Shown: positions 49,891 to 54,281 of the stretch, one piece after another
Position numbering within the stretch: the first letter of the stretch is position 1
Layout: the number at the start of each line of letters is the position of its first letter
Source of the DNA: a virus
DNA: 54,960 nt
IMG/VR virus record: IMGVR_UViG_3300030090_005625
Span: 1-54,960 of that record
Direction: 5' to 3' (one strand)
Made by a program: the position numbers and the translations under genes
Notes under the pieces: generated by a model
The model's database searches: none
What the model saw: the letters and a program-made list of their open reading frames with translations, nothing else
Told to the model about the DNA's origin: nothing

Positions 49891-50145
49891 ATGATATATG
49901 AATTAAAAAATAAGAACACTAATGATGTTATAACCAAAATAGACACGGACAAATTTGACATCAATGATGCAAAGTTTTACTTCATGGGTACAAAGAGATT
50001 AGAGGAAGAAGATTTTGATAGTTTGTTCGTGGTTAGTGAAGCACCCGTGATTAAAAAAAATATTAGTTATGATTGGTGGGAAGAAGAGAGAACGAATCTT
50101 GATATTGAAAAAGACGAAGAATACAAAGGTGGTCATCTAGGGTAA
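49891..50145 (+). CDS. Hypothetical acidic protein (84 aa)
   Basis: Two bases after the lipoprotein stop. Soluble and acidic; a beta-rich start (MIYELKNKNTNDVITKIDTD) then DWWEEERTNLDIEKDEEYKGG. One-base overlap with the next gene. No family recognised. Confidence 0.6.
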   Translation: MIYELKNKNTNDVITKIDTDKFDINDAKFYFMGTKRLEEEDFDSLFVVSEAPVIKKNISYDWWEEERTNLDIEKDEEYKGGHLG

Positions 50146-50723
50146 TGTCTGATTTAAGCGATTTACACGATTACGAAAGTAAACCCAAGAAAAAGAATCC
50201 TTTTCGTAGTAAACCAATACCGAAGAGCAGGATAGAATGGGCCATTAGGTCAACATTATCTATTAGAGCGGCTGCTAAGCATCTCGGTGTTAGTTATAAT
50301 ACATTTAAGAAATACGCCAAAATGTATGATTTATTCGAGAGTAATAAAAATCAAAGTGGTAAGGGAATAACGACAAAAGGTAATACTGGGTGGGGTGTTA
50401 AAATACAAGATTTGTTTGACGGAAAACATCCTAAATATCCACATTGGAAGTTGCAAGAAAGAGTGGTGCGAGACGGTTATTTGAAACAAGAGTGCAGTAA
50501 TTGTGGTTATGATGATTATAGAGAAACAGATATGAGAGGCCCGTTCTTGATATGTTTTCTTGATGGTGATTCAAGTAATTATGCGTTAGATAATCTTTAT
50601 TTATTATGTTACAATTGTTTCTTCATAGTTAAACCAACTGGTCGTATGTTATCAACGCCAAAAAATGTCACGTTATTACGTAAGAAATTAGAAGAAGTAT
50701 GGGTGGAAAAGGATGAGGAATAA
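50145..50723 (+). CDS. HTH plus degenerate HNH-like zinc protein
   Basis: 192 aa. Residues about 29-60 (RIEWAIRSTLSIRAAAKHLGVSYNTFKKYAKMY) form a helix-turn-helix. The C-terminal part has CSNC and LCYNC zinc knuckles in an HNH-like frame, ICFLDGDSSNYALDNLYLLCYNCFF. The catalytic histidines expected before LDGD and at the end of the motif are Leu and Phe, so nuclease activity is doubtful. This looks like a common marine phage DNA-binding family derived from HNH proteins. Confidence 0.72.
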   Translation: MSDLSDLHDYESKPKKKNPFRSKPIPKSRIEWAIRSTLSIRAAAKHLGVSYNTFKKYAKMYDLFESNKNQSGKGITTKGNTGWGVKIQDLFDGKHPKYPHWKLQERVVRDGYLKQECSNCGYDDYRETDMRGPFLICFLDGDSSNYALDNLYLLCYNCFFIVKPTGRMLSTPKNVTLLRKKLEEVWVEKDEE

Positions 50724-50981: not shown

Positions 50982-51299
50982 ATGTACGACCATTATAAAT
51001 CAGTACCAGACCCAGCCACAAAAGTAAATCACAAGAAGAAAAAACCAAAGTTAGTAGCGGTAGTAGACGAGGATAACTGCACAGGATGTCAAGTGTGCGT
51101 TCCGTTCTGTCCCGTGGATTGTATAGAGCCAGTTCCAAAGGACAAATACGATATACCGATACCGCCTGTTCAGATTAGATTCGATGAGTGTATCGGGTGT
51201 CAGATATGTGCAAAGGTTTGTACAGCGTTAACGTGGGACGCCATCAGAATGATGAAGACCGAGGAGTTCGAGGAAGTTTACGACTATGAAATTTCGTGA
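50982..51299 (+). CDS. Bacterial-type 2[4Fe-4S] ferredoxin
   Basis: 105 aa with two complete CxxCxxCxxxC motifs: CTGCQVCVPFCPVDCIEP near residues 33-50 and CIGCQICAKVCTALTWDAI near 70-88, the second with Thr in place of the usual Pro after the last Cys. It would carry low-potential electrons. Richer in G+C than the phage average, with two-base spacing from the upstream gene. Possible partners are host oxidoreductases or a radical-dependent step; the class II reductase in this phage is not known to need ferredoxin directly. Probably acquired from a bacterium. Confidence 0.88.
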   Translation: MYDHYKSVPDPATKVNHKKKKPKLVAVVDEDNCTGCQVCVPFCPVDCIEPVPKDKYDIPIPPVQIRFDECIGCQICAKVCTALTWDAIRMMKTEEFEEVYDYEIS

Positions 51300-52796: not shown

Positions 52797-52825
52797 TTGA
52801 CTTTTACTGGCTAATGTCGTATATT
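52797..52825 (+). promoter_or_regulatory. Sigma70-like promoter with downstream palindrome
   Basis: TTGACT (52797-52802), 17-base spacer, TATATT (52820-52825), preceded by AAAAAAGCTC. A perfect palindrome GTAGGCCTAC at 52839-52848 sits just after the expected start point, where an operator might lie. No gene starts before the next promoter, so it may add to transcription of the acidic gene or make a short RNA. Confidence 0.7.
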
Positions 52826-52901: not shown

Positions 52902-52931
52902 TTGACTTGTATTGTGTGCATACCGTATATT
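52902..52931 (+). promoter_or_regulatory. Sigma70-like promoter for the small acidic gene
   Basis: TTGACT (52902-52907), 18-base spacer, TATATT (52926-52931), preceded by AAAAAAGCTC. About 40 bases before the ATG at 52970. Confidence 0.75.
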
Positions 52932-53135: not shown

Positions 53136-53165
53136 TTGACACGTATACTGGTTATGTTGTATATT
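53136..53165 (+). promoter_or_regulatory. Sigma70-like promoter for the structured RNA
   Basis: TTGACA (53136-53141), 18-base spacer, TATATT (53160-53165), preceded by AAAAAAGCTC and with G before the -10 box. No ORF follows for 600 bases; instead the predicted start near 53171 coincides with the 5' strand of the closing helix of the RNA. Confidence 0.8.
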
Positions 53166-53169
53166 TAGG

Positions 53170-53747
53170 TATAAGATTTAGATGAGTGGAGAAGGTTTTG
53201 GGTTTCTCATTTCACCCGTTCTTTCCCTTCTCCACAAAAGATTCGAAAGACAAGAAGGGCGTTGATAGGAGATTAATCACCTCCTGAGTCTAATGGAGTT
53301 CTGAGAAACGAAGAGCTGATTACTTGAGTTTTGTTTGAGGGGCTGTAGGGTTCAAATCCCTACCTTGTCTACAAGATTTAAAATTAGAGAGCCGAAATAA
53401 TCCGTAAAGACATCGGCGGTGTGGTGAGACACTTGAAGTGGTATTCGTGATAGGGTTGAATTACGTACTAGAGACCCGAGACAGCCTCTCTTCTAAGTTT
53501 AAAGAGTAGTGGATAAACACCACAAACCCTAGAGCGATAATATCAAACGACGGAGCGTGAGGACTTCCCCACTACTCAAAGAATTAAACAACAAGTGGTG
53601 GGTAAATGGGATACCGACGCGTAGAGACATAGATACTGACGTGTTCCACCACGAAAATTTAGAGTAGTGGAGATATAACGGCTTGGTTCGAATCCAAGAG
53701 ACTTGCAATTTTAATAGGTGATTTCGGTCATCTATAAAATACTTATA
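53170..53747 (+). ncRNA. Large structured non-coding RNA with two T-arm modules
   Basis: No plausible gene lies here on the + strand. Ends pair: TATAAG (53170-53175)/CTTATA (53742-53747) and TAGATGA (53179-53185)/TCATCTA (53728-53734). Inside: GTGGAGAAGG (53186-53195)/CCTTCTCCAC (53226-53235); AGACAAG (53248-53254)/CTTGTCT (53364-53370); AGGAG (53267-53271)/CTCCT (53281-53285); GCCGA (53391-53395)/TCGGC (53413-53417); GAGTAGTGG (53504-53512)/CCACTACTC (53569-53577); GTGGTGG (53595-53601)/CCACCAC (53646-53652); and a UUCG-loop hairpin at 53714-53735 that competes with the closing helix. Two canonical tRNA T-arms: TAGGG-TTCAAAT-CCCTA (53346-53362) and CTTGG-TTCGAAT-CCAAG (53682-53698). No complete tRNA fits. 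Length and phage setting recall ornate large RNAs such as ROOL and GOLLD, but the class is not identified. Confidence 0.6.
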
Positions 53748-53782
53748 ATAAACAATCAAGCCTGTGAGGTAAAAAGCATTTT

Positions 53783-53953
53783 ATGACATCAGAACGAATA
53801 GACAACATGATAATGAAAGAAATAGTATACGATATAACGGCGGGTAACCTTTTGACCGACGCTGATGACGCAACACTCAGCATGATGTTGCAACACATGC
53901 AACACGTCAAGGAATACTTTCGAGAGAACGGGGTGATAATTGGAGAGGCATGA
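53783..53953 (+). CDS. Small helical protein (56 aa)
   Basis: ATG 53783 to TGA 53953: MTSERIDNMIMKEIVYDITA then GNLLTDADDATLSMMLQHMQ and a charged end. A coherent helical protein with G+C like the neighbouring small genes. The nearest purine-rich site (GTGAGG) is about 13 bases upstream, rather far. Lies just behind the structured RNA and may share its transcript. Confidence 0.45.
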   Translation: MTSERIDNMIMKEIVYDITAGNLLTDADDATLSMMLQHMQHVKEYFRENGVIIGEA

Positions 53954-54074
53954 CCCACCTGTACTAATTTGTCGTGAATCCAGAAGTATGTCATGCTGTC
54001 ATACGGCTCGGACTCGTCCGCATGTCGAGGTAAGCTTTTTCACCTATAGGAATTAATAAACATCGGTATCACAA
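53954..54074 (+). other. Short intergenic region with hairpin potential
   Basis: Contains GTATG (53986-53990)/CATAC hairpin potential, a CTCGGAC...GTCCG...CGAG nested stem soon after it, and the second copy of a 17-base element also found at 52756. No T-run follows, so a rho-independent terminator is not supported. Confidence 0.35.
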
Positions 54075-54281
54075 GTGATAAACACTATTACTAAAACCAA
54101 GAAACTTAAACAATTAAATCTTGCTCAGTTCTATATCCAACTGGTGACAGCTGGTCTTTTTGCGTATTTATCCATACGTGACGCCGACATGGTCAAGATG
54201 TTGATTGCTTTCCTCTTGTTGCTTAGCTGGACATTGGGTTATTGGAGACATAGAATCGTTAGAAGAAGATTAATGAAATAG
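54075..54281 (+). CDS. Small two-helix membrane protein (68 aa)
   Basis: GTG start at 54075, without a good ribosome site. Two hydrophobic segments, about residues 19-33 (FYIQLVTAGLFAYLS) and 39-56 (MVKMLIAFLLLLSWTLGY), with basic ends, the last being RHRIVRRRLMK. Could be holin-like or another small membrane effector. Followed after 9 bases by a gene with a strong AGGAG site. Confidence 0.5.
   Translation: MINTITKTKKLKQLNLAQFYIQLVTAGLFAYLSIRDADMVKMLIAFLLLLSWTLGYWRHRIVRRRLMK

What the first reader, a model, noticed from the sequence alone, without database searches (positions are those of the whole stretch)
53136..53747. Promoter-driven ~578-nt structured RNA with paired ends and two tRNA T-arm modules
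A strong sigma70-like promoter points into 600 bases without a + strand gene. The sequence contains at least nine long-range or local perfect helices of 5-10 bp, and the predicted 5' end pairs with the 3' end (TATAAG/CTTATA and TAGATGA/TCATCTA), which is expected of an independent folded RNA. Two perfect tRNA-like T-arms sit about 335 bases apart, each preceded by GGCT, yet neither belongs to a normal tRNA; the first is followed by CTTGTCT, which pairs with AGACAAG 110 bases upstream of it. GAGTAGTGG occurs twice (53504 and 53662) and both copies can pair with the one CCACTACTC, a possible switch. Size and phage context recall ROOL/GOLLD-type RNAs, but T-arm duplication may mark a new class.
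Basis: partly seen in the sequence, partly recalled or inferred. Interest (0 to 1): 0.85.

Follow-up and report, generated by a model that had tools for sequence, protein, structure and literature searches.

The report
Marine phage RNA with tRNA-like end

Summary
A structured RNA is really there, but it is smaller than claimed. The promoter (53136-53165, 11/12) and both perfect T-arms exist. The window has no other T-arm; shuffled windows average 0.27.

Two relatives in IMG/VR (L102, L144) define a conserved core, window 53504-53706. It has three parts: a 9-bp stem around a nearly invariant loop, an optional hairpin, and a 3' T-arm closed by a short acceptor-like stem. In the three sequences 84 of 84 pair cells are kept. 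Eight pairs change on both sides (0/500 shuffles), and RNAalifold finds the same helices.

The first 330 bases, including T-arm 1, have no homologue in either relative or in my searches. The paired ends and the "GAGTAGTGG switch" are not conserved.

Rfam has no hit (not ROOL, GOLLD, tmRNA or tRNA). A model of T4 species 1 RNA hits only the T-arm. Relatives of this phage carry true tmRNAs and other RNAs in the same place.

Best reading: a new, rare phage RNA family with a tRNA-like 3' module, perhaps cut from an early transcript by host tRNA enzymes. The main rival is a cis-acting leader, since a small gene always follows. Function is not shown.

The parts
53136..53165 (+). sigma-70-like promoter TTGACA-N18-TATATT, expected start about 53172; third of three similar promoters (52797, 52902, 53136)
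   Evidence: same promoter type directly before the RNA in L102 (13209-13241) and L144 (about 14855-14825, minus strand)
53186..53235 (+). 5' extension: 10-bp hairpin GTGGAGAAGG/CCTTCTCCAC
   Evidence: (z -3.4); no homologue, so no covariation test
53248..53370 (+). 5' extension, module 1: T-arm 1 (53346-53362) with acceptor-like AGACAAG 53248-53254 / CTTGTCT 53364-53370; a competing 11-bp helix 53324-53334/53371-53381 is in the MFE
   Evidence: unique to the window
53384..53493 (+). 5' extension, domain M: AGAGAG/CTCTCT-closed stretch
   Evidence: sequence and MFE only; a 16-mer of its loop finds only unrelated sites in IMG/VR
53504..53577 (+). core: stem A (53504-53512/53569-53577) around a 56-nt loop with 47 invariant positions and inner pairs 53527-53528/53552-53553
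   Evidence: four pairs changed on both sides in L102 or L144
53595..53652 (+). core: hairpin B (53595-53601/53646-53652 and 53617-53622/53639-53644), absent in L102
   Evidence: two pairs changed on both sides between window and L144
53662..53706 (+). core: T-module, acceptor-like GAGT/ACTT (53662-53665/53701-53704), invariant AGTGGAGATATAA linker, T-arm 2 (53682-53698)
   Evidence: two T-stem pairs changed on both sides, two acceptor-like pairs changed on one side; 18-nt 5' part invariant in three phages
53715..53734 (+).
   Evidence: no terminator-like site found
53783..53953 (+). small ORF (56 aa) that follows the RNA in all three phages, 69 nt (L102) and 32 nt (L144) after the T-module

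Best explanation
It is a phage-encoded structured RNA with a tRNA-like 3' module. Shown: its own strong promoter, a conserved fold of the core (53504-53706), and a 3' T-arm closed by an acceptor-like stem. Inferred: it is made early as part of a transcript that runs on into a small gene. Host tRNA-maturation enzymes (RNase P, RNase Z or 3' exonucleases, T-loop modification enzymes) recognise the acceptor-plus-T-arm module and free or protect the RNA, much as T4's RNA C and D are cut from its tRNA transcript. The invariant loop of stem A is then the working part, held out on a helix whose sequence is free to vary, and binds a conserved partner (protein, ribosome part or another RNA). The 5' extension with T-arm 1 is a later addition found only in this phage, perhaps a second RNA of the same kind on the same transcript.
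For: Core covariation: 84/84 cells paired, 8 pairs changed on both sides, 0/500 shuffles reach this, sliding the partner destroys it; RNAalifold independently gives the same helices and the same 8. Loops are nearly invariant while helices change. T-arms are far above chance. A promoter sits directly before the RNA in all three phages. In about 1.3 Mb of relatives' DNA, the only perfect T-arms outside normal tRNAs, tmRNAs and coding frames are in these RNAs, one tmRNA-related RNA (L173) and one odd tRNA-like site (L229) (coding frames judged by eye).
Against: Only three members, so the fold rests on few sequences. The acceptor-like stem is 4 bp plus two non-pairs, not the 7 bp of a tRNA, and there is no CCA, so recognition by tRNA enzymes is unproven. 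The RNA always lies in the leader of the same small gene, which fits a cis-acting role equally well. No transcript data.
Confidence: 0.42

Rival explanations
1. A cis-acting leader: the structured RNA sits in the 5' untranslated region of the small conserved gene (53783-53953) and controls its translation or the life of its mRNA; the T-module is a structural fold or a cleavage site.
For: The same small gene follows in window, L102, L144 (32-77 nt downstream) and also after different RNAs in L104 and L110; no terminator lies between.
Against: No conserved alternative pairing over the ribosome-binding site was found; a switch between the two GAGTAGTGG copies is not conserved; L108 keeps the gene without this RNA.
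Confidence: 0.33
2. A shrunken relative of tmRNA: the T-module is what remains of the tRNA-like domain and the stem A loop of the message-like part.
For: True tmRNAs exist in related phages (G002 82.3, G054 81.0, G049 77.5 bits); another RNA in the L102 phage shares a tmRNA pseudoknot (z about 8) and ends in a T-arm; a short frame GCG ATA RTA TCA AAC RAY RGR GCG TGA is open in all three cores (sequences).
Against: RF00023 does not hit window, L102 or L144; core against tmRNA sequence is within or near chance (best z 2.2); no 5' half of the tRNA-like domain at the RNA's 5' end, no G3-U70, no CCA; the frame lies in an invariant loop, so its conservation says little.
Confidence: 0.1
3. A tRNA decoy or mimic against host defences that act on tRNAs.
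For: T-arm and acceptor-like stem; early-type promoter; fast turnover of RNAs at this place among relatives.
Against: No anticodon arm, which most tRNA-cutting defences need (own knowledge); nothing tested here.
Confidence: 0.07
4. A ROOL- or GOLLD-type giant RNA.
For: Phage context and length of the window version.
Against: No Rfam match at gathering or at E up to 5; homologues run only about 135-240 nt from promoter to T-module; no tRNA array in the window.
Confidence: 0.01

Closest known systems
Bacteriophage T4 species 1 RNA (rnaC, RNA C)
   Same: Phage-encoded small stable RNA of unknown role (PMC3014915) with a covarying T-arm near its 3' end.
   Different: Outside the T-arm no similarity either way: the core model finds only the T-arm of T4 rnaC (15.7 bits) and an rnaC model finds only the T-arm here (9.3 bits). 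rnaC lies in a tRNA cluster and has a TTGACG/CGTCAA loop-loop pairing; neither was seen for the core.
tmRNA (Rfam RF00023)
   Same: tRNA-like domain with T-arm; present in related phages.
   Different: No Rfam score, no 7-bp acceptor with G-U, no pseudoknots shown, no tag frame with support.
manA RNA (RF01745) and other structured RNAs of T4-like marine phages
   Same: Structured RNA in a T4-like marine phage; manA occurs in the L102 phage itself and is usually placed in potential 5' untranslated regions (PMC9964418).
   Different: No sequence or model match of the core to manA or to any other of 4227 Rfam families.
ROOL and GOLLD RNAs
   Same: Phage RNAs of unknown function, hundreds of nucleotides long (PMC12286853).
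   Different: No model match; the conserved unit here is about 200 nt or less, with a T-arm.

Membership tests
tRNA / tmRNA (Rfam clan CL00001) | score above the family cut-off, ARAGORN call | tested here: not met
tRNA / tmRNA (Rfam clan CL00001) | T-arm with GTTCRANNC loop and 5-bp stem | tested here: met
   perfect and covarying for T-arm 2
tRNA / tmRNA (Rfam clan CL00001) | 7-bp acceptor stem next to the T-stem, ending in CCA | tested here: not met
   module 2: 4 bp plus two non-pairs, no CCA; module 1: AGACAAG/CTTGTCT 7 bp, one base off the T-stem, no CCA, no homologue
tmRNA | tag reading frame ending in a stop, preceded by pseudoknot PK1 | tested here: inconclusive
   short open frame kept in three sequences but within an invariant loop; no PK1 identified; no sequence homology to relatives' tmRNAs
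T4 species 1 RNA (rnaC) | covariance model match beyond the T-arm | tested here: not met
   positive control: the Salmonella phage Melville rnaC locus (L140) scores 91.6 bits
ROOL / GOLLD | Rfam model match | tested here: not met
ROOL / GOLLD | large multimeric RNA cage | not testable with these tools
   needs cryo-EM or mass photometry
new family proposed here | homologues with compensatory changes in the same helices | tested here: met
new family proposed here | transcript of the predicted size | not testable with these tools
   no RNA-seq available

The most novel reading that the evidence does not exclude
A miniature trans-translation RNA: a tRNA-like 3' module is charged and the loop of stem A supplies a very short tag (A-I-I/V-S-N-D/N-G/R-A-stop in the three phages), giving phages a tmRNA roughly half the usual size or less, with the tRNA-like domain in one piece at the 3' end.
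Probability: 0.05. Interest if true: 0.9.

Novelty: new variant of a known kind. Interest (0 to 1): 0.52.

Why it matters
T4's two small stable RNAs have been known for decades and their roles are still described as unknown (PMC3014915). This is an unrelated phage RNA that also ends in a T-arm, which suggests that phages have attached tRNA-like modules to other folded RNAs more than once. It gives a compact core with a nearly invariant loop that can be synthesised and tested for processing, charging and partners. It also shows that one genome slot in these marine phages swaps entire structured RNAs.

Tried and rejected
ROOL/GOLLD, tRNA and tmRNA by Rfam and ARAGORN: no match. blastn in phage records for window and L144 RNA: none. 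IMG/VR patterns from T-arm 1 and domain M: none or chance. Wider IMG/VR pattern for the core: only L102 and L144 real, 16 unrelated. GTDB genomes with AGAGTAGTGGAGATATAA: three chance hits. Core model R1 over relatives: no further member; the second search had no positive control in its set, so its emptiness is weak evidence. Switch between GAGTAGTGG copies: rejected, not conserved. 5'-3' end pairing: rejected, not conserved, and the 3' partner also forms a local UUCG hairpin. tmRNA descent: a first loose alignment looked significant for the window only; stricter scoring with T-arms removed did not hold (one search had a masking fault and is not used for that). Apparent resume-codon likeness to a relative's tmRNA: the relatives' tmRNAs show that stretch is a hairpin (GCGA/TCGC), so dropped. 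Minus-strand ORF 53529-53759: not coding, since L102 lacks about 80 bases inside it.

Full report
What is there. The window is a 54,960-base virus record of IMG/VR with T4-type replication genes (DnaB-like helicase, ribonucleotide reductase, DNA polymerase, clamp, clamp loader). Its polymerase is 45% identical to that of a Microcystis phage and about 33% to marine Synechococcus phages. At 53136 a TTGACA-18-TATATT promoter, the best in the region, points into 610 bases without a + strand gene. Two perfect T-arms lie there (loops 53351-53357 and 53687-53693) and nowhere else in the window; shuffled windows hold 0.27 on average over both strands. ARAGORN and all 4227 Rfam families give nothing, and a permissive Rfam search gives only chance scores.

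Homologues. The nearest relative at this place, found through the HNH-type protein 50145-50723, is L102 (95% identical protein). It has the same arrangement (promoter, RNA, same small gene), but its RNA is short: window 53494-53576 (90% identity) is followed directly by 53658-53794 (78%); 53172-53493 and 53577-53657 are missing. A pattern scan of IMG/VR gave a third copy, L144, which has 53577-53657 but again lacks 53172-53493. A wider scan found no fourth, the phage records hold none, and neither the whole contigs of relatives nor GTDB genomes gave another. So the conserved unit is window 53504-53706, and the first 330 bases, including T-arm 1, occur only in this phage as far as searched.

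The fold is real. On the three-sequence alignment, stem A, its inner two pairs, hairpin B and the T-module keep a standard pair in 84 of 84 cells. Eight pairs change on both sides; none of 500 shuffles reaches this, and sliding the partners by one base drops pairing to about 41% with no double change. RNAalifold, given only the alignment, predicts the same helices with the same eight compensated pairs. Loops behave the opposite way: 47 of 56 bases in the stem A loop and the 18-nt AGAGTAGTGGAGATATAA are invariant. This is the mark of an RNA whose helices carry conserved loops. L102 shows that hairpin B is optional.

The two GAGTAGTGG copies cannot form a conserved switch: the second is invariant, while the CCACTACTC strand becomes CCTCTACTA in L102 and CCATCACT in L144. 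The TATAAG/CTTATA and TAGATGA/TCATCTA end pairing is absent in L144 and only partly A/T-paired in L102, and TCATCTA also forms a local UUCG hairpin. GGCT before the T-arm is missing in L144. Counts of 6-bp inverted repeats are near chance, although those of 8 bp or more are in excess.

The T-module. T-arm 2 is closed by GAGT/ACTY, with invariant AG steps on both strands between that stem and the T-stem, and AGTGG follows the 5' strand. That resembles a tRNA elbow without an anticodon arm, but the acceptor-like stem is only 4 bp plus two non-pairs and has no CCA. The D-loop likeness of AGTGG is inference. Module 1 has a 7-bp AGACAAG/CTTGTCT next to T-arm 1, but an 11-bp competing helix exists and there is no homologue to decide.

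Surroundings. The slot between the promoter and the small gene differs among relatives. L104 and L110 hold another conserved RNA (CAAAGGGCGTAAAG hairpin loop with a changed stem), and L108 has none directly before the gene. True tmRNAs occur in G002, G049 and G054. The L102 phage has, elsewhere, an RNA that shares a tmRNA pseudoknot (z about 8) and a T-arm, followed by a manA RNA. The core itself shows no significant similarity to these tmRNAs once T-arms are removed (best z 2.2), and models of the core and of T4 species 1 RNA recognise only each other's T-arm.

Mechanism. I favour a stable RNA cut out of an early transcript with help from its tRNA-like end, its invariant loop being the working part (0.42). 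Promoter, fold and T-arm are shown; processing, stability and partner are inferred, and the comparison with excision of T4's RNA C and D rests on my own knowledge. A cis-acting leader for the small gene is nearly as likely (0.33), since the RNA has been seen only in that position. Tag-carrying mini-tmRNA is the boldest reading (0.05).

Limits. Three sequences only, no transcript data, 5' extension untestable, host unknown, and assembly of the 5' extension not verified by reads.

Noticed in passing
window 53968-54085; L102 13640-13760; L108 13340-13450; L104 13630-13750; L110 13704; L144 (minus) about 14362-14245: Second conserved noncoding element right after the small ORF: TCGTGAATCC...TCGAGGTC...ATAGGAATTAATAAACAT.GGTATCACAAGTGATA, kept even where the RNA slot differs; ends in a TATCACAAGTGATA palindrome.
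   Followed up: partly
L104 13160-13240 and L110 13125-13200 (also L111): A different structured RNA in the same slot: AAGCCCG ... ATAGTACTGAAAAG[stem]CAAAGGGCGTAAAG[stem]CATGA, with the stem changed from GTCAC/GTGAC to GCGGC/GCCGC and a possible AGCCC/GGGCG pseudoknot; no Rfam match.
   Followed up: partly
L173 minus strand about 4240-4070 (contig IMGVR_UViG_3300030085_003915): RNA with a T-arm (TGAGG-TTCGAAT-CCTTA) and a tmRNA-type pseudoknot segment GGTGGGTT..GACTACCTATTTGGAA (z about 8 against relatives' tmRNAs), with no 5' tmRNA half seen next to it: a tmRNA remnant or a split tmRNA; a manA RNA follows about 350 bases on.
   Followed up: partly
L253, L252, L271 (G049, G054, G002): Full tmRNA genes in related T4-like marine phages, the G049 one missed by ARAGORN in L211; apparent tags end in QPTYAYA*, QPSYSYAA*, QPSYAYAA*.
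   Followed up: partly
L136 1909-2047 (T4 rnaC) and L137-L139: T4 species 1 RNA: loop-loop pairing TTGACG/CGTCAA and T-stem both with compensatory changes across four phages, all pair cells kept; the Enterobacter phage Q7622 copy has lost the T-loop sequence.
   Followed up: yes
L229 minus strand 14192: T-arm with GGGTGT/ACACCC around 50 nt that is not an ordinary tRNA by eye: a possible further tRNA-like RNA.
   Followed up: no
window 52797-52825, 52902-52931, 53136-53165: Three near-identical promoter cassettes (AAAAAAGCTCTTGAC...TATATT) in 350 bases, as in L108: a hypervariable region of small promoter-driven units.
   Followed up: no
window 53233-53246 and 53371-53383; L144 minus about 14797-14784: Module 1 is flanked by ACAAAAGATTCGAA and ACAAGATTTAAAA, both like the single ACAAAAGATTTAA of L144, as if the module had been inserted there.
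   Followed up: no
window 50982-51299: Phage-encoded ferredoxin-like protein with two 4Fe-4S motifs.
   Followed up: no
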